35,096 bases of DNA. It comes from Nanobdellota archaeon (GTDB lineage: Archaea > Nanobdellota > Nanobdellia > Pacearchaeales > GW2011-AR1). This document shows positions 15,234 through 35,096 of the stretch, piece after piece. Position 1 is the first letter of the stretch. The number at the start of each line of letters is the position of its first letter. Where the stretch lies: NCBI GenBank assembly GCA_030647965.1, contig JAUSIT010000033.1:1-35096 (forward strand), written 5' to 3'. The notes beneath the pieces are model-generated. The model was not told where the DNA came from. It worked only from the letters and a program-made list of their open reading frames with translations, and did no database searches. Both the position numbers and the translations under genes were made by a program.

Positions 15234-16676
15234 ATTCCAGTTTATCCTGCTGGAGGCTGCAGCTATTTGGTTTGGATTAAGCCATGCAAGTTTGTCGCAA
15301 GACAGCGAACTGCTCAGTAACACGTAGTTAATCTAACCTTAGGTCAAGGATACCCTCGGGAAACTGAGAAGAATACTTGATACGAGATTTTTTCTGGAAC
15401 GATATTTCTCTGAAATTCGAGCCTAAGGATGAGACTGCGGCTGATTAGGTAGTTGTTGAGGTAAAGGCCCAACAAGCCGATGATCAGTAAGGGCTCTTAG
15501 CGGAGTCGCCCTGAGAAGGAATCTGAGACACTATTCCTAGCTCTACGGAGTGCAGCAGGTACGAATTTTTTGCAATATACGAAAGTGTGACAGAGCGAAC
15601 CAAAGTGCTTTCCGCACAGGAAAGCTTTTCATTGCTGTAAAAAGGCAGTGGAATAAGGACTGGGTAAGACTGGTGCCAGCCGCCGCGGTAATCCCAGCAG
15701 TCCAAGTTGCAGCCATCTTTATTGGGTCTAAAACATCCGTAGCTTGCTTAATAAGTTTCTTGTGAAATCTTATATCTCAAGTATAAGCCGTTGCAAGAAA
15801 TACTATTAGGCTAGAGACCGGTAGATGTAAAGAGTATGTTCGAGGTAGTGGTAAAATATGTTAATCTCGGATAGACTAACGATGAGCGAAGGCACTTTAC
15901 AAGGACGGATCTGACAGTGAGGGATGAAGGCTAGGGGCGCAAAACGGATTAGATACCCGTGTAGTCCTAGCAGTAAACACTGCTCACTAAACATTGGTCT
16001 CTCTTCGGGAGAAATCAGTGCTGAAGCGAAGGCGAAGAGTGAGCTACCTGGGAAGTATAGTCGCAAGATCGAAACTTAAAGGAATTGGCGGGGAGACACT
16101 ACAACGAGTGACGCGTGCGGTTCAATTAGATTCTACACCGTGAACCTCACCAGGAGCGACAGCAGGATGAAGGTCATTCTAAAGGGCTTACCTGACACGC
16201 TGAGCGGAGATGCATGGCCGACGTCAGCCTGTGCTGTGAAGTGACCAGTTAAATCTGGTAACAGGCGAGACACTTGTGCATTATTACCACCGAAAGGAGG
16301 ACTTTATGCAGACTGCCTTGGTAACAAGGAGGAAGGTATGGGCTACGTTAGGTGAGTACGTCCCTAATCCCCTGGGCTACACGCGCGCGGCAATGGTATA
16401 CTCAATGAGATGCAACTCCGAAAGGAGAAGCTAATCCCCTAATGTATATCTCAGTCTAAATTGAGGGCTGCAACTCGCCCTCATGACACTGGAATTCGTA
16501 GTAATCGTTCATTAGCAGTGAACGGTGAATATGTCCCTGTCTCTTGCACACACCGCCCGTCAAACCAACCGAGTTATGCAGAGGTGAAGCTTTTTTAAGA
16601 AAAACCTTCGTATGATAAGGTAGGTTAAGTCGTCACAAGGTATCTGTAGGGGAACCTGCAGATGGATCACCTCCTA
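15234..16676 (+). rRNA. 16S ribosomal RNA
   Basis: A complete archaeal small-subunit rRNA of about 1440 nt. It starts ATTCCAGTTTATCCTGCTGG and ends with the anti-Shine-Dalgarno GGATCACCTCCT. The 530 loop (GCCAGCCGCCGCGGTAA), the archaeal AAACTTAAAGGAATTGGCGG, GATTAGATACCCGTGTAGTC and CACACCGCCCGTC are all present. Ends are set by comparison with known archaeal 16S ends and may be off by a few bases. Near the 3' end AAGTCGTCACAAGG replaces the near-universal AAGTCGTAACAAGG (C at 16634), which also weakens the common 1492R primer site. Short open frames inside it are chance. Confidence 0.97.
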
Positions 16677-16737
16677 AAAATTTTTACTCTTGATATAATA
16701 AGAAATTATTAAATCAATTGTAAAAGGAAAAATTTTT
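16676..16737 (+). repeat. Hairpin repeat, copy 3 (after 16S)
   Basis: AAAAATTTTTACTCTT (16676-16691) and GTAAAAGGAAAAATTTTT (16720-16737) form a diverged version of the hairpin seen after rpsB, inside the 16S side of the processing region. Confidence 0.4.
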
Positions 16738-16765
16738 CAAAATTTTTTTAAAAATTTTAAATTTC

Positions 16766-16801
16766 GTAAGCTCTTTTTAGAGTTGATTGTTCCTAGCTTC
16801 A
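16766..16801 (+). repeat. Downstream arm of the 16S rRNA processing stem
   Basis: GTAAGCTC, AGAGTTGATTGTT and CTAGCTTCA pair with the three upstream segments at 15070-15140, closing the pre-16S helix. Confidence 0.75.
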
Positions 16802-16899
16802 ATATATAAAATTAAATAAATAAAAATAAATTTGATTAGAAAAAATAAATAAAACAATAAACAAACATTTAAAAATAAAAACAGGCACCAATAAAATAA

Positions 16900-16970
16900 G
16901 GGCCTGTAGTCCAACGGTATAACACTTCGTTTGCACCGAAGAGATCCGTGTTCAATTCACGGCAGGTCCA
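16900..16970 (+). tRNA. tRNA-Ala (anticodon TGC)
   Basis: A 71-nt tRNA between 16S and 23S, the usual archaeal place for tRNA-Ala. The acceptor stem GGGCCTG/CAGGTCC carries the G3:U70 wobble that marks alanine tRNAs. The anticodon arm CTTCG-TTTGCAC-CGAAG gives anticodon TGC, and the T arm is CCGTG-TTCAATT-CACGG. The D stem is weak: only two good pairs are visible. No 3' CCA is encoded. Confidence 0.92.
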
Positions 16971-17294
16971 TTCGAGCAATTTCGCGAAGACAAAATAAAA
17001 TTGTCAATCACGAACGAGATTGCGAGTTGTTCTAAAAATGGAAATAGATAAATAAAAATCATAAATCACACTCACATCGAGGGAGAAGTCAACTTCAAAA
17101 ATGACATAGGATGTAAAAGTCCATCAATGATGAACTTTGCAAGATGTTTTGCAAAGGGAGTTTGATAATATGAAATCATATTAAATGAGAACAGTACTTA
17201 ATTAAAAAATTTTATTTTGTAAAAAAAATAAAATTTAAGTTTCCCACATTATGTGTGGAAGGAAGAAGAATATCCTACGATTTTGTTTAAATTT
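16971..17294. other. Spacer between tRNA-Ala and 23S rRNA
   Basis: No gene is seen in this 324-nt spacer. It holds several hairpins, including CTTTGCAA/TTGCAAAG (17135-17156) and AATATG/CATATT (17167-17182), and the upstream arm of the 23S processing stem. The exact 5' end of 23S within or just after it is uncertain. Confidence 0.5.
17188..17209 (+). repeat. Upstream arm of the 23S rRNA processing stem
   Basis: This 22-nt stretch (core AGAACAGTACTTAATTAAAA) is an exact reverse complement of 20176-20197, some 3 kb away on the other side of 23S. The pair forms the pre-23S processing helix. Confidence 0.85.
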
Positions 17295-20100
17295 TATTTA
17301 AGCAAAATTTTTGAAACTGTTAGACGAATAGCTTGGCTTAAATTACGACGAAGGACGTGGCAAGCTGCGATAAGCTTAGGCGAGCTGCATGCGAGCATTG
17401 AACCTAAGATTTCCGAATGTGAAACACTTTTATTCCGAGAGGAAGGAAAACGCCGAGAATTGAAACATCTTAGTACCGGCAGGAAAAGAAAATAAATTAA
17501 TGATTCCCCTATTAGCAGCGAGCGAAAAGGGAAAAGGGCAAGCTGAATCTTTGCTCGAAAGAGTGTAAGAGATGTGGTGCACGTAAATTTCTAAGTGAAT
17601 GATTTGAATTTTCTGGAAAGAAAGACCTTAGAAGGTGATAGTCCTGTAAAATAGTTCATATGAAATTGTGTATATGAGTAGGGCCCTCTGGATTGGGGGT
17701 CTGAATACAGCAGAATTAACTGCTAACCCTAAATATTGATTTAAGTCAGATAGCGCAAGAGTACCGCGATGGAAAGCTGAAAAGTACTCTCACAAGAGGG
17801 TTAAAAGACTTGAAATCTAACAGTTACAAGATTGCTACTGCCCTACGGGGTTGTAGCGTACGTTTTGAAGAACGGGCCGGGGAGTTTATCTTTGTGGCAA
17901 GGTTAATAAATGGAGCCGTAGCGAAAGCAAGTCTGAAATGGGCGTTAGTCACTGAGTTAAGACCTGATGCCAGATGATCTATACCTGAACAGGATGAAGT
18001 TTCTTGAAAAAGAAATGGAAGTCCGAACTAGTGCTATGTACATGTGCTTGGATGATTTGGGTATAGGGGTGAAAAGCCATTCTAATCTGGCGATGGCTGG
18101 TTCCTATTGAAATATGCCTGGGTATAGTTTTGTATTGCTTGTTAATGAGGTAAAGTACGGATAGGGTTTGCAGAGTCTTCTGACTACGGAACTCTTTCCA
18201 ACTCAGAACTTATTAACTGCAGAATACAAGAAGCAGCTTCGGTGCGTAAGGTACCGTGGCGAGACCCGAATAAGGGAGACTGAAGTTAAGGTCCCAAAAT
18301 ATTTGCTAAGTGTATCAAAGAGAGTTTTTATTCTAAGACAGTGGGGATGTAGGTCCAGAAGCCGCCACCATTTAAAGAAAGCGTAACAGCTCACCTATCG
18401 AGAATAGAAGCCTCGAAAATGGACCGGGCTAAAGCAAATTACCGATACTTCAGAGGTATCTAGTTAGATACTCTGGTAAATAGGCGTATTTCTTGCGTCG
18501 AAGCTTCTCTGTAAAGAGGAGTGGAGCGAGAAGTAATGCGGATCCCGGTGGAAGTAGGATCTGATCTTCCTGAGAACCGGAAGATGTCGAAAGGGCAAGG
18601 TTTCCTTGGCACTAACAATTATCCAAGGGTTAGTCGGTACCTAAGTTGTATCTTAACTGAGTACGACGATGGGCAACAGGTTAATATTCCTGTACTGACT
18701 ATTTTTGCTAAGATTTCAAATCACTTTCGGATAGATGGAATACCGAGAGGTATAATGAAAGAGAAATAAATGGATCGTAATGATAAGAAGTTTATGAATC
18801 TTCACTAATTCGTCAACTCCAAGAGTCAGTGAAAAGTTTGAAGTATAGAAAATAGTTAGCCGTACCGAGATCTAGCACTGGTGCCCTAGCTGAGAAGGCT
18901 AAGACATGAAAGGTTAAATTAGTTAAGGGAATTCGGCATATTAGTCCCGTATCTTCGGTATAAGGGATGTCTATTTTCTTGTATGAATTTTTATATGGGA
19001 AAGTAGATCACAGTAACAAGGATGGCCCGACTGTTTACCAAAAACGTAGCCAAGTGCAATTCCGAAAGGAGATATATACTTGGTGAAGTCTGCCCAGTGG
19101 TGGTGTCTAAAACTCTATTCCAATGGAGCTAAAGCCCATCAAACGGCGGGCGTAACTATGACGCTCTTAAGGTAGCGTAATGCCTTGTCGTCTGAATGGC
19201 GACGTGCATGAATGGCGTAACGAGGTTGTCACTGTCCCTAACTAAAACCTTCCGAACTCATTTACCGGTGAAAAGGCCGGTATCGCCTAGTGGGAAGCGA
19301 AGACCTTATAAACCTTTACTGCAGCCTGTTGTTGTGTTTTTATTGTAAGTGCATAGAGTAAGTAGGAGCATCGATGTCGCGATTTTGGTTGCGACGGAGC
19401 AAAAGTGTAACACTACTCATTCATGATGAAAATGCTCACTTTTCTAGGACAGCAATAGGTGGGCAGTTTGGCTGGGGCGGCGCCCGGTTGAAAAGATATC
19501 AATCGGGCCTAAAGACAGGCTCATCCAGGTCGGAAATCTGGAGTAGAGTGTAAGGGCAAAAGCTTGTCTGACTGTTTTTCGAAAAGCAAGAAAAGCAGGG
19601 ATGAAAGTCGGGCCTAACGAACCACCATAGCTTTTTAATGGGGCTTGGTGATGACAGAAAAGGTACTTTAAGGATAACAGGCTTGTCGCTCCCGATAGTC
19701 CACATTGACGGGGCGGTTTGGTACATCGCTGTCGGCTCTTCCTATCCTGGCTGTGCACAAGCAGCCAAGGGTGTCGGAGTTCACGCATTAAAAGGGATCG
19801 TTAGCTGGGTTAAGAACGTCGTGAGACAGTTTGTATGATATCTACTAGGTGTGTTATTGTCTGAGTGGAACGACTCTCTAGTACGAGAGGAACGTGAGTC
19901 GGAAGCCTCTGGTGTATCGGTTGTTATGAGCAGGCCGAGCAGCTACGCTTTATATCGATAAGAGCTGAAAGCATCTAAGCTCGAAGCGATCCGCAAAACG
20001 AGACAATTAAGGCCGCAACAAAAGATTGCGTTGATAGAGATGGGATGTACGCACGAAGGCAACGACGTGTTCAGTCCGCATCTACTAATAGCCTCATTAA
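17295..20100 (+). rRNA. 23S ribosomal RNA
   Basis: A complete archaeal large-subunit rRNA of about 2.8 kb. Hallmarks are GACGAAGGACGTGGCAAGCTGCGATAAGC split across 17346-17374, TAACTATGACGCTCTTAAGG, the P loop (GGCTGGGGCGG), AAGGATAACAGGC, GTCGTGAGACAG and the sarcin-ricin loop (CTAGTACGAGAGGAACG). The 5' and 3' ends are placed by analogy with other archaeal 23S sequences and are uncertain by tens of bases at the 5' end. Several peptidyl-transferase-centre bases differ from the near-universal ones (see findings). Many short open frames in this span are chance and should not be annotated. Confidence 0.95.
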
Positions 20101-20124
20101 TATATTCTTCTTTTTTGAAGAAAC

Positions 20125-24912: not shown

Positions 24913-25130
24913 ATTGTAGTTTAATAGATGCCTGTTGCTGGCATAAAAGTCCTGTGAATATATTATTACATTATGTCGCCGGTATTATTTTAATTTATGG
25001 ATTATGGTATCATCAATGGAGTTTTATTATTTCTGCTATTGTAATTGCAATAATTGGCCATATAATTCAATCATGTTTAATAAAAGAAAATAAAGGGGAT
25101 AAGAAAAATGCAAAAATTAAGAAAAAATAA
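24909..25130 (+). CDS. Small membrane protein
   Basis: A 73-residue protein with cysteines near the N-terminus (NCSLIDACCWHKS), two helices (about residues 17-33 and 37-56) and a very basic tail (KENKGDKKNAKIKKK). Translational coupling to the preceding gene by ATGA suggests a membrane partnership. Its end overlaps the start of the pilin-like gene by 23 nt. Family not recognised. Confidence 0.5.
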   Translation: MNCSLIDACCWHKSPVNILLHYVAGIILIYGLWYHQWSFIISAIVIAIIGHIIQSCLIKENKGDKKNAKIKKK

Positions 25131-25671
25131 TAAAGCAGCAATTGAATTATCTATTGGGACAATAGTTGTTGTTGTTTTAGCAATGTCTATGTTAATTTTA
25201 GGTTTAGTTTTAGTAAAAAATATTATGACTGGCTCTATAAATAATGTTGACCAAATAAACGAAAAAGTAAAGGGAGAAATTAACAAATTGTTTGTTGAAG
25301 ATAAAACAGTAGTATTATATCTTAAAAATGGTGAAGCTCAAATCAAGCAAGGTGGAAGCTGGGGAATTGCATTTGGAATAAAAAATTTAGAAACAGGAAC
25401 AACACAAGGTTCTAGTTTTACTTATGATGTAGAGGTTTCAGATAGTAAGATTGAAGATAAGTGTGGGATTACAAAAGAAGATGCAGAATTGTGGATTACA
25501 ACAGGAAAATCAGATGAATTTCAAATTGCTCCTGGAAAAACACAAACAGGAATTGTAAGATTTAATATTCCTACAGAAGCACCTTTATGCACAATAAGAT
25601 TTCATATGAATGTTCAAAAAGATGCAAAAGCATATCAAACAGAAATCTTTGATATAACTACAATAGCATAA
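25108..25671 (+). CDS. Archaellin/type IV pilin-like protein
   Basis: A 187-residue protein. A short basic leader (MQKLRKNNKA) runs into AIELSIGTIVVVVLAMSML, the class III signal-peptide pattern cut by archaeal prepilin peptidase, with the hydrophobic N-terminal helix kept for filament packing or membrane anchoring. The rest is beta-rich (LYLKNGEAQIKQGGSWGIAFGI). It has two cysteines, DKCGI and PLCTI, that may form a disulphide. The start overlaps the previous gene. AAAGGGGA about 10 nt before the ATG is a likely ribosome site. No pilus assembly ATPase or membrane platform gene is in the window. Confidence 0.7.
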   Translation: MQKLRKNNKAAIELSIGTIVVVVLAMSMLILGLVLVKNIMTGSINNVDQINEKVKGEINKLFVEDKTVVLYLKNGEAQIKQGGSWGIAFGIKNLETGTTQGSSFTYDVEVSDSKIEDKCGITKEDAELWITTGKSDEFQIAPGKTQTGIVRFNIPTEAPLCTIRFHMNVQKDAKAYQTEIFDITTIA

Positions 25672-25869: not shown

Positions 25870-26727
25870 ATGATGAAAATTCTAGCCATTGGTGACTTTC
25901 ACGGAGATTTTCCTGAAAAATTAAAAGTTCTAATAAAAAACGAAAAACCTAAATTAATTTTATCAACAGGAGATTATGCAGGGATAAAAGAATGGAGACC
26001 TTTGCTTAAAAAAATATTCAAAGCAAGAAACAATGGAAAAAATTTAAGTGCATTAGAAATTCTTGGGACTAAAAAATATAATTTATTATTAAAAAAAGAT
26101 TTTAATGACGGGAAAAAAGTTATAGAAAATTTAAATAAATTAAAAATAAAAACTTTTTCTGTTTTTGGTAATGGTGACTGGTATGAACCTATTCCAAATG
26201 ATTCGAAAAGAAACTATGCAAAATTAATAAAAAAACTAAATTATATTAAAAATATAAACAGGGGGCATGGAAGTTTTGAAAAATTAAAAATTACAGGATT
26301 TGGGGGCTATTTAGACCCAGATGCTTATTTTACAAAAATAGGTATAAAGGCAATTAATGAAGATAAAGAAACAAATAAAGAAAGAAAAATAGGCTATGAT
26401 TATGAAGAAGAAAAATTAATGAATTTAATAAAAAATAAACCTGAAATTCTTTTGATCCATTATACACCTTATGGTTGTTTAGATAGATTAAAAGAAAAAG
26501 ACTCTCCTTTAAATGGGAAAAATTTAGGAGTAAGCTCTTATAACAGGGCAATTGAAAAATTTAAGCCTGTTTTAGTTATCTGTGGGCATATGCATGAAAA
26601 TCAGGGCTCATGTAATATTGGAAAAACAATTATTGTAAATCCTGGTTCAGCATCTGAAGGAAAAGCTGCAATTATTGAGTTTGATGAAAAAGAGAAAAAG
26701 ATAAAAGGAGTGAAGTTCATAAAATAA
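25870..26727 (+). CDS. Calcineurin-like metallophosphoesterase
   Basis: A 285-residue metallophosphoesterase with the five metal-site motifs in order: GDFHGD, STGDYAG, FGNGDWYE, LIHYTPYG and ICGHMHENQG. The final NPGSASEGKAAIIEF is common in archaeal members of the family. The substrate is unknown; relatives act on phosphodiesters or nucleotides. The TATA-like TTTATTAATT (25840-25849) lies about 25 nt before the ATG at 25870 (a second ATG is at 25873). cysS starts 1 nt after the stop, so they form an operon. The upstream gap holds small hairpins (AATTTGCC/GGCAAATT, near 25735-25755). Confidence 0.85.
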   Translation: MMKILAIGDFHGDFPEKLKVLIKNEKPKLILSTGDYAGIKEWRPLLKKIFKARNNGKNLSALEILGTKKYNLLLKKDFNDGKKVIENLNKLKIKTFSVFGNGDWYEPIPNDSKRNYAKLIKKLNYIKNINRGHGSFEKLKITGFGGYLDPDAYFTKIGIKAINEDKETNKERKIGYDYEEEKLMNLIKNKPEILLIHYTPYGCLDRLKEKDSPLNGKNLGVSSYNRAIEKFKPVLVICGHMHENQGSCNIGKTIIVNPGSASEGKAAIIEFDEKEKKIKGVKFIK

Positions 26728-28081: not shown

Positions 28082-28091
28082 AAGGAAGGTG
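28082..28091 (+). promoter_or_regulatory. Strong Shine-Dalgarno of the RuBisCO-fragment gene
   Basis: AAGGAAGGTG, 3-5 nt before the ATG at 28095, matches the anti-SD (CACCTCCT) well. It argues that the 50-codon frame is translated and is not just a decayed relic. Confidence 0.55.
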
Positions 28092-28094
28092 AAA

Positions 28095-28247
28095 ATGAAA
28101 ACATTAGAATTTGTAAATTTGAATTATAAACCAACTAACAATGATTTAATATGTTTGTTTAAAATTATTCCTAATAAAATGTCTTTGCAAGAGGCAGCAA
28201 ATAATGTTGCTCTTGAATCTTCTATTGGAACATTAAATGAATGTTAA
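28095..28247 (+). CDS. 50-residue RuBisCO N-terminal-domain fragment
   Basis: An intact 50-codon frame (MKTLEFVNLNYKP at the start, LNEC at the end). It aligns without gaps of note to residues 16-62 of the RuBisCO next to it: LNYKPTNNDLICLFKIIPNK against VNFDLKNPKNGEYMLCVFHL, and EAANNVALESSIGT against QAAAEVAAESSTGT. Identity is modest, so the duplication is not very recent. It stops after the first helix of the N-domain and cannot be catalytic. A strong ribosome site precedes it and no frameshift is seen. It may be a maintained small protein, perhaps binding RuBisCO, or a truncated paralogue on its way out. Confidence 0.6.
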   Translation: MKTLEFVNLNYKPTNNDLICLFKIIPNKMSLQEAANNVALESSIGTLNEC

Positions 28248-28305
28248 GTTAAAAAGTGTTTTCCTGTTTAAAAAACTTTAAATAGTTTATAATTGTTTAA
28301 ATAAC

Positions 28306-28312
28306 AAGGGGG
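28306..28312 (+). promoter_or_regulatory. Shine-Dalgarno of RuBisCO
   Basis: AAGGGGG about 10 nt before ATG 28323. A TATA-like CTTTAAATAG (28276-28285) lies further upstream, so rbcL may have its own promoter after the fragment gene. Confidence 0.5.
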
Positions 28313-28322
28313 ATAAAAAGAG

Positions 28323-29777
28323 ATGGATATAAAAAAACTGCTGAAAACACTTAATCTACATCAAACAGCTTATGTGAATTTTGATCTGAAAAATCCAAAA
28401 AATGGAGAATATATGCTTTGTGTTTTTCATTTAGTTCCTGAAAAAAAATTAAATATATTGCAAGCTGCTGCTGAAGTTGCAGCTGAATCATCAACAGGAA
28501 CAAATTTTAAAGTTAATACTGAAACTCCTTTTTCAAGAAATTTGAATGCTTTAATATACCAGATTGATTTAAAGAGAAATTTAGTTTGGATAGCTTATCC
28601 ATGGAGATTATTTGATAGAAGAGGAAATGTTCAGAATATATTGACATATGTTGTTGGGAATGTTTTAGGAATGGGAAGTATAGTTGCTTTAAAATTATTA
28701 GATGTCTGGTTTCCTCCTACAATGTTAGAACAATATGATGGGCCCAGTTATACCTTGGATGATATGAGAAAATATCTAAAAGTGTATGATAGACCTATAC
28801 TTGGAACAATAATAAAACCTAAAATGGGGTTGACTTCGGCAGAATATGCAGAAGTATGTTATGATTTCTGGATTGGTGGAGGAGATTTTGTTAAAAATGA
28901 TGAGCCGCAAGCAGACCAAGATTTTTGCCCATATGATAAAATGGTTGAAAATGTAAAAGAAGCGATGGATAAAGCAGTAAAAAAAACAGGGAAGAAAAAA
29001 GTTCATTCTTTTAATGTTTCAGCTCCTGATTATGATACAATGATTAAAAGATGTGAGTTAATAAAAAATGCAGGATTTGAAAAAGGAAGTTATGCTTTTT
29101 TAATAGATGGGATAACCGCCGGGTGGATGGCTGTTCAGACGTTAAGAAGAAAATATCCTGATGTCTTTATACATTTTCACAGAGCAATGCATGGTGCTTT
29201 TACACGTCCTGAAAATCCAATTGGTTTTACTGTATTAGTTTTATCTAAGTTTGCAAGATTAGCGGGTGCTTCGGGAATACATACTGGAACAGCAGGAGTT
29301 GGGAAAATGAAGGGAAGTCCTGAAGAAGATATTGTTGCAGCACATAATATTCTACATTTAAAAGATAAAGGATATTTCTTTGAACAAGAATGGGCAAAAA
29401 TACCTGAGAAAGATAAAGATATGATGCATTTAGTGCATAGAGATTTAACACATCATGTTATATTTCAAGATGATAGTTGGAGGGGGGTAAAAAAGTGTTG
29501 TCCAATTATTTCAGGAGGTTTAAATCCTACTTTATTGAAACCATTTATAGATATAATGGGAACAATGGATTTTATAACAACCATGGGTGCAGGAGTGCAT
29601 GCTCACCCAAAAGGAACACAAGAAGGAGCAACTGCTTTAGTTCAGGCATGTGAATCATACAAGAAAAAGATAGATATACACAAATACGCTAAGACACATA
29701 AAGAATTAGCAGAAGCAATTAAGTTTTTTGAGAAAAATAAGAAAGAAGTGAAGAGTTCTAATAGTGAGAATAGTTAA
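28323..29777 (+). CDS. rbcL: RuBisCO large subunit, form II/III-like
   Basis: A 484-residue RuBisCO. Catalytic residues are kept: K165 in GTIIKPKMGL, the carbamylated K191 with D193 and E194 in GGGDFVKNDEP, H286 in IHFHRAMHGA, H320 in SGIHTGT, loop-6 K328 in GVGKMKG and the phosphate site SGG at 397-399. AAESSTGTN marks the N-domain. Compared with form II enzymes it has an insert of about 25-30 residues (about 352-390) before CPIISGGLNP, as in form II/III enzymes of methanogens and DPANN archaea. In such archaea RuBisCO works in the AMP/nucleoside pathway, giving 3-phosphoglycerate from ribulose bisphosphate; enolase here could use that product. AMP phosphorylase and the R15P isomerase are not in the window. 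Confidence 0.93.
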   Translation: MDIKKLLKTLNLHQTAYVNFDLKNPKNGEYMLCVFHLVPEKKLNILQAAAEVAAESSTGTNFKVNTETPFSRNLNALIYQIDLKRNLVWIAYPWRLFDRRGNVQNILTYVVGNVLGMGSIVALKLLDVWFPPTMLEQYDGPSYTLDDMRKYLKVYDRPILGTIIKPKMGLTSAEYAEVCYDFWIGGGDFVKNDEPQADQDFCPYDKMVENVKEAMDKAVKKTGKKKVHSFNVSAPDYDTMIKRCELIKNAGFEKGSYAFLIDGITAGWMAVQTLRRKYPDVFIHFHRAMHGAFTRPENPIGFTVLVLSKFARLAGASGIHTGTAGVGKMKGSPEEDIVAAHNILHLKDKGYFFEQEWAKIPEKDKDMMHLVHRDLTHHVIFQDDSWRGVKKCCPIISGGLNPTLLKPFIDIMGTMDFITTMGAGVHAHPKGTQEGATALVQACESYKKKIDIHKYAKTHKELAEAIKFFEKNKKEVKSSNSENS

Positions 29778-29788
29778 TTGGGAATAAC

Positions 29789-30100
29789 ATGGATAAAATA
29801 AAAAAAAGAATAATAGAATCAAGAGAAAGAGCCATAAAACATGGGAGAATATTTAAAAAAGAAATTTTTAATTCTACAAATACTGCGATTGTTGCTGCAT
29901 TTGGTTTTCTTATTGCACTTACATGGAAAGATGTTATTACAGAAGTTGTTGGAAAAATAGAACAATTTGATTCGATAAGTGGAAAGCTGATAAGCGCTTT
30001 GCTGATTACAATAATTTGTGTTGCAGGAATTTTAATAACAACAAAACTTCTTTCAAATGAAATGGAAAAGCCAGATTATGCTAAGATAATAAAGGCGTAA
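29789..30100 (+). CDS. DUF5654-like small membrane protein
   Basis: A 103-residue protein with a basic amphipathic start, then FKKEIFNSTNTAIVAAFGFLIALTWKDVI, then a second helix (about residues 66-88, LISALLITIICVAGILITT). The pattern of F..E...T.AI..AFGF.IAL.WKD and two helices fits DUF5654, a family of archaeal membrane proteins of unknown role. It follows rbcL by 11 nt and may share its transcript. Confidence 0.6.
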   Translation: MDKIKKRIIESRERAIKHGRIFKKEIFNSTNTAIVAAFGFLIALTWKDVITEVVGKIEQFDSISGKLISALLITIICVAGILITTKLLSNEMEKPDYAKIIKA

Positions 30101-30192: not shown

Positions 30193-31209
30193 ATGGGGCT
30201 AAAAAATCTTATATCAAAGGTTGCTTTGATTTCTTGTTTAAGTTTTGCTGGTTTGAACAATGGTTGTTATACTGTTATGGCACATAAAGATATTATAAAA
30301 ACTGAAAATGCAAGAATAGAACAAAAAATTGAAATAAATAATTATAATGCAGAATATTCTGGTGGCGGAGGATATGTTTATAATTCTCTTGGACAGGATT
30401 TTTATAATCCTTTTTGGAGTTTACATAATCCTTTTTGGAATAATTATAATTATGGAGATAGATATTATGGACCTGATTTTGGTTTTGGGTATAGTTATTA
30501 TGATCTTGGTTTTAGGCCTTGGCATAATGATTTTTGGTTAGATTATTATTCTCCCTATAGGTCTCATTCTTTTAGACATTACCCTCATATTCCTTTTTCT
30601 AGAGATTCTTCAAGAGATTGGGAAGATGAAAGAGAAGATAGAAACGGGAGAAGTGATGGACAAGAACCAAAAATTAATTACCGAACTAATGAAAGACAAA
30701 TAAGAATGGACAGACTTGGAACAACAATTAGAAGAACTTCACAAACTCCTCAATTAGATAGACAAAATGTAAATAAACCAGACCAGCAAAATCCAATTAA
30801 CAGAAGTCAAAGAAATTATCAAAATCAACAAAGAATAGATAGAACTGATTCTCAACAACCACAAAGAACAGAAAGAAGAAATTATCAATCAACACAACCT
30901 CAACAAACACAACCTAAACAATCAGAACAATATCAACAACCTAAATCAAATCAATCAAACACAGAAAGACCTTTAACTCAACAACCAAGAGTTTCTCCAC
31001 AACCTCCAGTAAGAAGAAATTCAGAAAGTATAACAATAACTTCAAGAAGAGAGTCTCAACCTGTTTCACAACCTAGACCTGCTCCACAACCTCAAATAAA
31101 ATCAGATAAACCTGTTTCACAACCACAATCTTCTCCAAGACAACAAAGAGCCCCAACTCAACAAAATAGTTCTGAAAAAGAAAAACCAGTAAGAAGAGGA
31201 ATAAAATAA
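30193..31209 (+). CDS. Secreted Gln/Pro/Arg-rich low-complexity protein
   Basis: A 338-residue protein. The N-terminus (MGLKNLISKVALISCLSFAG) is signal-like and ends in NNGC at residue 25, a possible but imperfect lipobox. Residues 55-135 are rich in Tyr, Phe, Trp, Asn, Gly and Asp (YNPFWSLHNPFWNNYNYGD). From about residue 140 it is highly charged and then Gln/Pro/Ser/Arg-rich to the end, very likely disordered. Such Tyr/Trp then Gln/Pro layouts are known mostly from bacterial envelope proteins. The gene stands alone before the amidase operon, with a TATA-like TTTTATAAAT about 60-70 nt upstream. Confidence 0.6.
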   Translation: MGLKNLISKVALISCLSFAGLNNGCYTVMAHKDIIKTENARIEQKIEINNYNAEYSGGGGYVYNSLGQDFYNPFWSLHNPFWNNYNYGDRYYGPDFGFGYSYYDLGFRPWHNDFWLDYYSPYRSHSFRHYPHIPFSRDSSRDWEDEREDRNGRSDGQEPKINYRTNERQIRMDRLGTTIRRTSQTPQLDRQNVNKPDQQNPINRSQRNYQNQQRIDRTDSQQPQRTERRNYQSTQPQQTQPKQSEQYQQPKSNQSNTERPLTQQPRVSPQPPVRRNSESITITSRRESQPVSQPRPAPQPQIKSDKPVSQPQSSPRQQRAPTQQNSSEKEKPVRRGIK

Positions 31210-31277: not shown

Positions 31278-31883
31278 ATGAAAATTCATGAAGAAAAATT
31301 AAAATTTTATGATAGAACTTATACTTTAAAAACAGAAGGATTAAGAGAAAATAAGCCCGAATTTATTGTTATGCATGCAACTTATTCTTATGTTGACTTT
31401 GAGGGTGTTTTAAAAAAACATAAATCATTTGGATGGAATGGAGTAGGGTATCATCTTTTTATTTCTGGTGAAAATAGCATCTATCAAGGCAGGCCGTTTA
31501 ATTTAGAAGGCAGTCATGCACTGGGATTTAATACAAAATCGATTGGTATTTGCTTTTATTTACCTAAATGTATAAATGAAAAAAGAATAAAAACTGCAAA
31601 TGAAATTTTGAGTTTTATTAATGAATCAGATAATCTCGAAGTTATACCTCACACCTTAGCACAAATTGTATATGACAATAAACTACTAAGAGATTTAGAA
31701 GTAGACAAACAATTTCCTGAAGCAATAGATGTTGTTAGTGAAAAAAGATTTGAAAAAATAAAAAAGGATATGAGTTCTCTTGCAGATATATTAAATGATT
31801 CTAAATATAAAAAAATAAATTGGCTATTAAGGTCCTTTAAAAATTGTCCAGGACCTTTATTCTATAATTTTAGGAGATATTAA
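31278..31883 (+). CDS. Amidase_2/PGRP-fold amidase, cytoplasmic
   Basis: A 201-residue protein with the fold signature of zinc N-acetylmuramoyl-L-alanine amidases (T7 lysozyme and PGRP family). Aligned to T7 lysozyme, the zinc ligands are H33 (IVMHATYS), H125 (VIPHT) and C190 (NCPGPLF), and the catalytic tyrosine is Y58 (GWNGVGYHLFI). IYQGRP and GSHALGFNTKSIGICF complete the core. About 60 residues are inserted between H125 and C190, where the family normally has only a few. There is no signal peptide, so it should act inside the cell. It cleaves amide bonds in known relatives; the substrate here is unknown. Its stop overlaps the next start (TAATG), so it is coupled to the ligase-like gene. 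Confidence 0.82.
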   Translation: MKIHEEKLKFYDRTYTLKTEGLRENKPEFIVMHATYSYVDFEGVLKKHKSFGWNGVGYHLFISGENSIYQGRPFNLEGSHALGFNTKSIGICFYLPKCINEKRIKTANEILSFINESDNLEVIPHTLAQIVYDNKLLRDLEVDKQFPEAIDVVSEKRFEKIKKDMSSLADILNDSKYKKINWLLRSFKNCPGPLFYNFRRY

Positions 31884-33562
31884 TGGCTGATAAATACATA
31901 GGAATTGAGAATGAATTGACTAGTTTTAATGATGAAAATGAGGAAATTGATTTTAAGAAGTATTTTGATAGATTTGCCAATGATTCTGATTATAGAAAAG
32001 CAAGAAATGCAATACGAACAACAACTGGAAATGGGTTTTATGTTGATGGTGCGGAAATTGAGATTTTAACACCGCCAATTTTGATTAATAAAGGATTTGC
32101 AACAAGATTAACTGATTCTTTAATGATTGGAAGAGATAGAGTTGTAAAATCAATTCCAGAATTAAGGAATACTGGATATTCAATGCACTGGAATTTAAGC
32201 TCACAAAAAGAACTTCAAGAAATTTCTGATAATTATAGGATTGAAAAAATCTCAGATTTTTATAAAAGATTAATAATTCCATTTCATTTATTTGGATTGA
32301 CTCCCCTATCTGTAGGGTTAGCAATACGAGATAGAACTAGTTTGGGCAGATATGAATTATTGGGAGATTCTATAAATAACGAAGAGCAGATTAATGCACT
32401 TGGTTTAATGTTAGGGGCTTATAGCCATTTAGCATCAAATTTAGATAAACATGATAAAAATTTTCATTTATATTATTCAAATTTTAATTTTTTTAGTGTT
32501 AATTGTAGAATAGATTCATTTTTGAAAAATAAAAGATACAGTTATTTTGATTCAAATCAGGGAGAAATTCAGGCACAGCAATATTTAGAAATGTTTTACA
32601 AGTGGATTGAACCGTTTGTTTCTGTATTAGGAACTAAAAAAGAAGTTCAGAATTTAGAGGATTTTATAGAAGGAAGAAAACAATTAGAATTTGATAAATT
32701 CAAGTATTATAATTGTTTAAATGAAATGAATTTTAAGTCTGGAGGGACTTATTTGCCAAATGAACTTTTTAAAGCAATCACCTTAACTGAAACAAGAGAA
32801 AGAAAAATTCCATTAGAAGGAGAACTTTTAGGAGAGATTGTAAAACAATTAAAAGATAAAATAGAGGAAATGTCCTGGAACAACATTACAATTAATGATA
32901 ATAACTCAGAAATAAAAGGAATAAGAGAAATTTATGAATTTGCAAGAAGATTAAATACAAAATTACCAACACTAAAAGAAATTAATTTAGATGAATTGCA
33001 AACTCAACATATTGATTTTGGAGATTTATTAGATAGTGCTGGAATTAAACAAGATGTTAGCAAAGATACATCCTTAGATTTGCCAGAAAAGGATATTAAA
33101 GAATTTTTTAAACTGAACCTTAGCCCCCCGGTTTATTGCAAAAATAAATTAGGAAGATTTAGTAAATATTATGATAATGAAACAAGAAAAGCTAAAGATG
33201 TAGTTTGTGAGGAATGTGCCGCCCATAATAATTGTTATCCCGAAATAAGAGATAATGAAAAACCAGAACATGGTCTTGAATATAAGATAAAGGGATTGGA
33301 GGATTTTAGAGAACACCTTCTTCATTTCAATGGCCAAAATTTTAATTATCGAATAGAATATATTTTTGATGAAAGTGGAAGAAGAATAGGAACAAGAAAC
33401 AGAAGAACTTCATCTATAGAAGGAACTGATTTACAAGATAATGAGATAATCCCTCCATTAATATCTTTAAGAAATGGAGATATATCCAGATATTTGGATG
33501 TATTAAATCCAGATAGAAGAGAAGAAAGAAACAATGAAGAAGGAGAAAATAATGACAGATAA
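31883..33562 (+). CDS. Carboxylate-amine ligase-like protein (PafA/Dop-like), paralogue A
   Basis: A 559-residue protein. Motifs in the order of Pup ligase/depupylase are: YIGIENEL (E9, E11), GNGFYVDGAEIEILTPP (D55, E58, E60; compare NGARLYLD..HPEY), GYSMHWNLS (H102, N104; compare YGCHENYL), LIIPFHLF with G nearby (compare LLPFLVTRQ), and GRYELLGDSINNEEQI (R156; compare RRLHVIVGDSNMSE). These map to ATP/Mg and catalytic sites of that family, including the base Asp. Amidoligase_2 or GCS2 relatives are alternatives in the same superfamily. A possible zinc knuckle lies at C419, C442, C445, C451. About 105 further residues form a tail missing in paralogue B. No signal peptide. TAGGAGAT before the ATG is a good ribosome site. 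Confidence 0.62.
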   Translation: MADKYIGIENELTSFNDENEEIDFKKYFDRFANDSDYRKARNAIRTTTGNGFYVDGAEIEILTPPILINKGFATRLTDSLMIGRDRVVKSIPELRNTGYSMHWNLSSQKELQEISDNYRIEKISDFYKRLIIPFHLFGLTPLSVGLAIRDRTSLGRYELLGDSINNEEQINALGLMLGAYSHLASNLDKHDKNFHLYYSNFNFFSVNCRIDSFLKNKRYSYFDSNQGEIQAQQYLEMFYKWIEPFVSVLGTKKEVQNLEDFIEGRKQLEFDKFKYYNCLNEMNFKSGGTYLPNELFKAITLTETRERKIPLEGELLGEIVKQLKDKIEEMSWNNITINDNNSEIKGIREIYEFARRLNTKLPTLKEINLDELQTQHIDFGDLLDSAGIKQDVSKDTSLDLPEKDIKEFFKLNLSPPVYCKNKLGRFSKYYDNETRKAKDVVCEECAAHNNCYPEIRDNEKPEHGLEYKIKGLEDFREHLLHFNGQNFNYRIEYIFDESGRRIGTRNRRTSSIEGTDLQDNEIIPPLISLRNGDISRYLDVLNPDRREERNNEEGENNDR

Positions 33563-34982
33563 ATACATAGGAATTGAAAATGAATTAGTTAGTTTTTATG
33601 AAGAATATGAGCAGACTAGTTTTCAAAACTATTTTGATAGATTTGCAGATGATTCTGATTATAAAAAATCTAAAACTGCAGTAAGAACAACAACTGGAAA
33701 TGGATTTTATGTTGATGGGAGTGAAATTGAGATTTTAACACCCCCAATTTTGATAAACAAAGGATTTGCAACAAGATTAACTGATTCTTTGATGATTGGA
33801 AGAGAGAGGGTGGTAAAATCAATTCCTGAATTAAAGCATACAGGATATTCAATGCACTGGAATTTAACAGCTGAAAAAGATTATGACAAGATAGAACAAT
33901 TTTACAGAATTATTGCAATCCCTTTTCATTTATTTGGCTTGACTCCTTTATCTGTTGGATTAAATATGAGATGGAAAGTAGATACAGATGATGGTGAGAA
34001 AGAAGTTATAAAAAGATATGAATTATTAGGAGATTCTATAAATAATGAAGAGCAGATTAATGCTCTTGCCTTGATGCTTGGTTCTTATTCCCATATAATG
34101 AGACATTTTGATTACTTGGGAAAAAAGCAATTTCCTTTAAAAGATTTGGATTTAGATTTAGATTATACTGAAAACTTAACTGAAAAATTTCTTCCAGAAG
34201 GAAGATCTAGTTTTATTAAAGCTATAGTGAATAAACCTATTCAGGCACAGCAATATCTGGAATTGTTTTACAAATGGATTGGGCCATTTGTTTCTAAATT
34301 AGGAAGTAAAAAGGAAATCCAGAATTTAGAGGATTTTATAGAAGCAAGAAAACCTCTTGAATTTGATAAATTCAAGTATTATAATTGTTTAAATGAAATG
34401 AATTTTAAAGAGCGGGGAGTTTATTTGCCAAATGAACTTTTTAAAAATATTGTCTTAACTGAAACAAGAGAGAGAAAAGTGCCATTAGAAGGCAGGCTTT
34501 TAGGCGAGATTGTAAAGCAGCTAGAAGATAAAATAGCAAGCATGGAATGGGATAAAATTTCATATAAATTATTAACTTTTTGCAAGATTTGTGAGGAATA
34601 TCATAATGAAGAAATTAAAGAAATTAAAGAAATAAGTAATATTTATAAATTTGCAAGAGGGCTTGATAAAGAATTGCCTGAATTTGAACAAAATAATTTT
34701 GATGATATAAAAATAACTGAGGGCAATATTATTTTAGAATATTTGGAAAAATTAGAAGAATTAAAATATCGTCCTGATAAAGATAATTCTTTAGATTTGC
34801 CAGATGAAGAGATAAGAAATTTTTTTAGAGGTATTGAAGAGGATTATGAGTGTCAAATACAACTAGAAAGATTTAGCAGCTATTATAATAATAGTAGCAG
34901 AAAAGCAGAAGATATAGTTTGCAAAGAATGTGATAAAATATGTTATAATAAAAAGAAAATAACGAAGAAGGGGAAAAACTAA
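33552..34982 (+). CDS. Carboxylate-amine ligase-like protein (PafA/Dop-like), paralogue B
   Basis: A 476-residue paralogue of A. I start at ATG 33552 (MTDKYIGIENEL), which matches the starts of the other two copies and has GAAGGAGA just upstream; ATG 33534 would add six residues. It overlaps the end of A by 11 nt. Residues about 44-98 are almost identical to A (VRTTTGNGFYVDGSEIEIL and onward), including every motif residue. The middle and the segment before IIPFHLF differ and have indels. The C-terminal cysteines are kept (ECQIQ, VCKECDKICY) but the protein ends soon after, without the tail of A. Same fold and caveats as A. Confidence 0.62.
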   Translation: MTDKYIGIENELVSFYEEYEQTSFQNYFDRFADDSDYKKSKTAVRTTTGNGFYVDGSEIEILTPPILINKGFATRLTDSLMIGRERVVKSIPELKHTGYSMHWNLTAEKDYDKIEQFYRIIAIPFHLFGLTPLSVGLNMRWKVDTDDGEKEVIKRYELLGDSINNEEQINALALMLGSYSHIMRHFDYLGKKQFPLKDLDLDLDYTENLTEKFLPEGRSSFIKAIVNKPIQAQQYLELFYKWIGPFVSKLGSKKEIQNLEDFIEARKPLEFDKFKYYNCLNEMNFKERGVYLPNELFKNIVLTETRERKVPLEGRLLGEIVKQLEDKIASMEWDKISYKLLTFCKICEEYHNEEIKEIKEISNIYKFARGLDKELPEFEQNNFDDIKITEGNIILEYLEKLEELKYRPDKDNSLDLPDEEIRNFFRGIEEDYECQIQLERFSSYYNNSSRKAEDIVCKECDKICYNKKKITKKGKN

Positions 34983-34983
34983 A

Positions 34984-35096
34984 ATGGAAAATAAGTATAT
35001 AGGAATTGAGAATGAATTGATTAGTTTTAATGATGAAAATGAACAAATTGATTTTGGGTATTATTTTTATAGATTTGTAAATGATTCTGATTATAA
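34984..35096 (+). CDS. Third ligase-like paralogue, cut by the window end
   Basis: Starts 1 nt after the stop of paralogue B with MENKYIGIENELISFNDENE and stays open to the last base (37 codons). It is closer to A than to B in this stretch (SFNDENE and the run FVNDSDY against FANDSDY). It shows that the tandem array has at least three members. Confidence 0.8.
   Translation, partial: MENKYIGIENELISFNDENEQIDFGYYFYRFVNDSDY

What the first reader, a model, noticed from the sequence alone, without database searches (positions are those of the whole stretch)
28095..28247. Stand-alone 50-residue RuBisCO N-domain peptide with a strong ribosome site
The frame is intact, aligns to residues 16-62 of the adjacent RuBisCO, and has AAGGAAGGTG just before its ATG. 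Divergence from the parent without any disruption hints at selection. A truncated N-domain could modulate RuBisCO assembly, or be a relic.
Basis: partly seen in the sequence, partly recalled or inferred. Interest (0 to 1): 0.6.

Follow-up and report, generated by a model that had tools for sequence, protein, structure and literature searches.

The report
Leftover start of a replaced RuBisCO
The small gene is the surviving first tenth of an older, different kind of RuBisCO that was swapped in place for the RuBisCO gene now beside it; it is most likely a genetic fossil, not a working peptide.

Summary
The ORF is real: 28095-28247 (+), 50 aa, start of a RuBisCO large chain (Pfam E 1e-10), with a ribosome site. 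The adjacent rbcL (28323-29777) is form II/III and only 43% identical to the peptide. The peptide is up to 75% identical to the start of intact ~430-codon type III RuBisCO genes in the same DPANN archaeal family, and a recent-duplicate origin is rejected (AU p = 0.0001). In relatives the intact type III gene sits in the same slot: pilin-like gene, cysS, rbcL, sometimes DUF5654. The window has cysS, the 5' stub, form II/III rbcL, DUF5654. No genome among 200 of the order carries both forms. Among 117 matches in the order, this is the only short stand-alone ORF away from a contig edge. The stub follows intact enzymes to Gly-Thr46, where they continue with Trp; residues 4-46 score at the median of intact genes. 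Best reading: the relic of a probably recent in-situ gene replacement. Neutral simulation shows the open frame is only weak evidence for selection. A functional microprotein cannot be excluded but has no positive support. It is an unusually clear example of a known process; interest is modest.

The parts
25108..25671 (+). pilin-like 187-aa gene, first gene of the conserved neighbourhood
   Evidence: homologues upstream of cysS-rbcL in many relatives, for example L060 60%, L040 43%, L041 38%; no Pfam or NCBIfam name, 'pilin-like' from its N-terminus read by eye
25870..26727 (+). phosphoesterase-like gene, also between pilin and cysS in some type III loci
   Evidence: TIGR00040/TIGR03729 matches below cut-off; same place in L057 and L060, and before cysS in L054
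26729..28057 (+). cysS, cysteine--tRNA ligase, left flank of the slot
   Evidence: TIGR00435 511 bits, cut-off 340; on the same strand upstream of intact type III rbcL in most family loci with enough flank
28082..28091 (+). Shine-Dalgarno-like AAGGAAGGTG, most likely inherited from the type III rbcL
   Evidence: sequence; similar sites stand before intact type III genes, e.g. gaggtgaac-ATG (L034) and gaggcgaaa-ATG (L071)
28095..28247 (+). 50-aa ORF: codons 1-46 (28095-28232) are the 5' stub of a lost type III rbcL, followed by LNEC and TAA
28233..28322 (+). junction region: non-homologous or heavily decayed sequence, two imperfect 28-nt direct repeats (28249-28276, 28278-28305), presumed promoter and ribosome site of the incoming gene near its 3' end
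   Evidence: homology to type III beyond codon 46 inconclusive; repeats; no RNA family
28323..29777 (+). intact form II/III rbcL (484 aa), the replacement gene
   Evidence: NF010002 636 bits, cut-off 489; best PDB matches 8vgs and 5mac; 76-83% to genes of 20 other genomes of the order
29789..30100 (+). DUF5654 membrane protein, right flank of the slot
   Evidence: PF18898 E 5e-14; directly downstream of intact type III rbcL in L041 and L071

Best explanation
The ORF is a relic: the ribosome site and first 46 codons of a type III (AMP-pathway) RuBisCO gene that once filled the slot between cysS and the DUF5654 gene. A form II/III RuBisCO gene, probably acquired laterally, now fills the rest of that slot. 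Shown: the type III kinship, the shared slot, the clean loss of homology after Gly-Thr46, the absence of the rest of the gene and of any second RuBisCO, and the absence of the stand-alone ORF elsewhere in the order. Inferred: that the form II/III gene made the old one redundant and displaced it by non-homologous recombination or by insertion plus deletion, that the event was recent, and that any peptide made is non-functional.
For: Identity up to 75% to intact type III rbcL of same-family genomes versus 43% to the adjacent gene. Tree: fragment inside the type III clade (100/100) and its family subclade (96/99); pairing with the adjacent gene rejected, AU p 0.0001. Same slot: pilin-like gene, cysS, type III rbcL in relatives, with DUF5654 next in L041 and L071. 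Intact genes read ESSxGTWT...; the stub reads ESSIGT then LNEC-stop. Own genome has no other type III piece. None of 200 genomes holds both forms. No other form II/III locus examined has a stub. Only 1 of 117 matches in the order is a short ORF away from a contig edge. Residues 4-46 score 133 versus family median 134, as expected if truncation was recent.
Against: The frame is still open and the residues are family-typical, which selection would also give; neutral decay of 0.1 substitutions per site would already usually spoil the score, so the relic reading needs a recent event or luck. Placing the fragment on the stem of all form II/III genes is not rejected by the tree alone (p 0.16). There are no read data to exclude an assembly join. 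No second genome of the genus is held to date the event.
Confidence: 0.9

Rival explanations
1. A retained microprotein: the truncated N-terminal segment is translated and kept by selection, for example to bind RuBisCO subunits or tune assembly.
For: Intact frame, ribosome site, residues 4-46 at the family median of intact enzymes. If the weak similarity after codon 46 is a true, decayed remainder, the contrast with the intact first 46 codons would favour selection.
Against: No other genome has it. An open frame survives neutral drift of 0.05 substitutions per site in 62% of simulations, 29% with indels counted. It holds only about a third of the N-domain and derives from a different form than the enzyme present, so the partner it evolved with is gone.
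Confidence: 0.04
2. Assembly artefact: the contig joins a type III strain's cysS region to a form II/III strain's gene.
For: The genome is a fragmented draft (45 contigs, 85% complete); no reads available.
Against: The DUF5654 flank also matches the type III slot, so two false joins would be needed; no other type III piece in the assembly; form II/III follows cysS in other genomes as well.
Confidence: 0.05
3. A partial duplication of the adjacent form II/III rbcL that diverged.
For: Adjacent, same strand, alignable at 43%.
Against: Much closer to type III; AU test rejects grouping with the adjacent gene, p 0.0001; its start (MKTLEFVNLNYKP) is type III-like and unlike the adjacent gene's.
Confidence: 0.01

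Closest known systems
Archaeal type III RuBisCO (TIGR03326), AMP pathway, in DPANN archaea
   Same: Sequence of residues 4-46, start context, and gene slot after cysS
   Different: Only the first 46 of about 420 codons remain; no catalytic domain
Form II/III RuBisCO (NF010002; PDB 8vgs, 5mac)
   Same: The adjacent intact gene is one, 636 bits
   Different: The stub is not a duplicate of it
Lateral transfer of RuBisCO forms among CPR and DPANN (Jaffe et al. 2019, doi 10.1093/molbev/msy234; seen only as cited in PMC9875498 and PMC8407392)
   Same: Patchy forms spread by transfer
   Different: Here a physical remnant of the displaced form remains in the very slot. I could not read that paper to see whether such stubs were reported
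In-situ xenologous gene displacement with a pseudogene remnant (general process, own knowledge)
   Same: Foreign gene in the native gene's place, leftover fragment
   Different: Nothing in kind; an unusually readable case

Membership tests
Type III RuBisCO (fragment of) | Nearest relatives and clade are type III rather than II/III | tested here: met
   sister to the adjacent gene rejected p 0.0001, but the stem of all II/III not rejected p 0.16
Type III RuBisCO (as an enzyme) | Full-length protein with catalytic domain over the curated cut-off | tested here: not met
   40 bits versus cut-off 497, residues 5-47 only
Pseudogene or relic | Truncated relative to intact orthologues in the same syntenic slot | tested here: met
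Pseudogene or relic | Relaxed constraint after truncation | tested here: inconclusive
   Codons 4-46 family-typical; single genome, so no dN/dS within the genus
Conserved small-protein gene | Same stand-alone ORF in relatives | tested here: not met
   No other among 200 genomes of the order; none in the other form II/III loci examined
RuBisCO N-terminal domain | Complete domain (120 profile positions) | tested here: not met
   Positions 1-44 of 120
Form II/III RuBisCO (adjacent gene) | NF010002 above cut-off | tested here: met
   636 bits, cut-off 489

The most novel reading that the evidence does not exclude
After the swap the type III N-terminal peptide was kept and is translated as a microprotein that acts on RuBisCO assembly.
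Probability: 0.03. Interest if true: 0.6.

Novelty: new member of a known kind. Interest (0 to 1): 0.27.

Why it matters
RuBisCO forms are patchy in DPANN archaea, and trees put this down to lateral transfer. Here the slot keeps the start of the old enzyme beside the new one, which is direct evidence of one-for-one replacement in place. In this order the two forms do not co-occur (0 of 200 genomes) and both are often found after cysS, so the locus could be used to count how often the forms were exchanged. It also warns that a short ORF with a good ribosome site and a domain hit can be a fossil.

Tried and rejected
Recent duplicate of the adjacent rbcL: rejected by tree. A conserved small gene before rbcL: searched in 200 genomes and in 21 other form II/III loci, none. 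Third own-genome hit C13:92260-92373 (E 0.003, one stop in frame): not recovered with either full-length RuBisCO query, taken as chance. Decayed continuation of the type III gene in 28233-28322 (a KVFS-like stretch): best score above all 21 control upstream regions, but p 0.08-0.14 by dinucleotide shuffle, 0.03 against AT-rich window segments, and no profile hit; left open. Structured RNA at the junction: no Rfam match. A 16-mer of the junction repeated at 32707 and 34379 lies in tandem paralogous coding genes; taken as coincidence. Structure prediction was not run, since a fold of a 46-residue piece would not decide between relic and microprotein.

Full report
Observation. The ORF at 28095-28247 (+) is as described: ATG, 50 codons, TAA, with AAGGAAGGTG at 28082-28091. 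It hits PF02788 RuBisCO_large_N at E 1.1e-10, but only profile positions 1-44 of 120, so it is the first third of the N-domain, not the domain. It hits the type III model TIGR03326 at E 2.2e-10, and its best solved-structure match is 2cwx, a RuBisCO that is more like the peptide than the adjacent gene is.

The neighbour is a different form. The intact rbcL at 28323-29777 scores 636 bits with NF010002 (cut-off 489) and misses the TIGR03326 type III cut-off (346 versus 497). Its best solved structures are 8vgs and 5mac; the depositors of 5mac call it type III, and I use 'form II/III' for this group from established knowledge. The peptide is 43% identical to the neighbour over 42 residues.

True parent. 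In the window's own family the peptide is up to 75% identical to the start of intact ORFs of about 420-440 codons. Two of these were checked and pass the type III cut-off, at 587 and 571 bits. Aligned, the peptide follows them from its start to ESSIGT (residue 46). All of them then read W; the window reads LNEC and stops. A tree puts the fragment inside type III (100/100) and inside the family subclade (96/99). Forcing it next to the adjacent rbcL is rejected (AU p 0.0001). Forcing it onto the stem of all form II/III genes is less likely but not rejected (p 0.16); so few columns cannot do more, and synteny carries the rest.

The slot. In relatives with enough flank, cysS (TIGR00435) usually lies upstream of type III rbcL on the same strand, in 11 loci within 200 bases, and often with the same pilin-like gene before it; three also have the phosphoesterase before cysS. 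In L041 the order is pilin-like, cysS, type III rbcL, DUF5654, with the last two overlapping. The window is pilin-like, phosphoesterase, cysS, stub, form II/III rbcL, DUF5654. The stub stands where the type III gene should begin, and the form II/III gene fills the rest.

One form per genome. Of 200 genomes of the order, 147 have a RuBisCO match at E 1e-20 and 21 have form II/III. Searched with a full type III enzyme, none of those 21 shows a second gene; the only extra match is the window's own stub. Genera g36, g37, g45, g59 and g90 each contain genomes with one form and genomes with the other, so exchange has probably happened repeatedly. Drafts are incomplete, so 'none' is provisional. About half of the form II/III genes also lie downstream of cysS, none with a stub. 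The window's form II/III gene is nearest, without strong support, to genes that mostly do not follow cysS. PMC8407392 states that RubisCO neighbourhoods in DPANN are not conserved; within this family the cysS link largely is.

Selection or not. The stub is unique: of 117 matches in the order every other lies in a frame of 358 codons or more, except two cut by contig ends. Its residues 4-46 score 133 bits against a family profile (median of intact genes 134), and it has two states not seen in the others, within the normal range. So it has not visibly decayed. Neutral simulation shows what that is worth: at 0.05 substitutions per site 62% of copies stay open (29% if indels are counted at a tenth of substitutions) and 76% of the open ones still score as family members; at 0.15 almost none do. 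The data therefore say 'truncated recently, or constrained', and uniqueness, the foreign partner and the incomplete domain favour 'recently'. The ribosome site is no evidence for a peptide gene, since some intact type III genes carry similar ones at the same distance.

Junction. Between codon 46 and the form II/III start are 90 bases, 79% A+T. They show a faint collinear resemblance to the next type III segment (AAAGTGTTTTCC... for KVFS) that beats 21 control upstream regions but not shuffles (p 0.08-0.14), and it is not found by a profile. If real, the old gene decayed there while the first 46 codons did not, which would favour selection; I mark this as open.

Context. The genome has one AMP phosphorylase-like gene (507 bits, just under the 535 cut-off, full-length match), so both RuBisCO forms would plausibly serve the same nucleotide pathway, which makes one-for-one replacement easy to understand (inference; PMC9875498 assigns both forms to that role and PMC8407392 does so for DPANN RubisCO).

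Verdict. A relic of in-situ RuBisCO replacement. It is ordinary in kind and unusually legible.

Noticed in passing
31883-33562 and 33534-34982 (a third match begins at 34984): Tandem large paralogs (57% and 78% over the matched parts) with no Pfam or NCBIfam match, next to an Amidase_2 protein at 31278-31883.
   Followed up: partly
29789-30100; L041, L071, L107, L108: A DUF5654 membrane protein gene lies downstream of rbcL of either form in several genomes; a possible functional link to RuBisCO.
   Followed up: partly
15234-20108: Complete archaeal 16S, tRNA-Ala, 23S operon (15234-16675, 16900-16970, 17300-20108).
   Followed up: yes
same-family genomes, e.g. G016, G053, G128, G137, G143, G146: A further RuBisCO group of about 470-510 codons, 45-48% to type III, with no match to the first 25 or so residues.
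   Followed up: no
28249-28305: Two imperfect 28-nt direct repeats (75% alike) just before the form II/III gene.
   Followed up: partly
30193-31209: 338-aa protein, secreted-looking by eye and rich in Q, P, R and N in its second half; no Pfam match.
   Followed up: no
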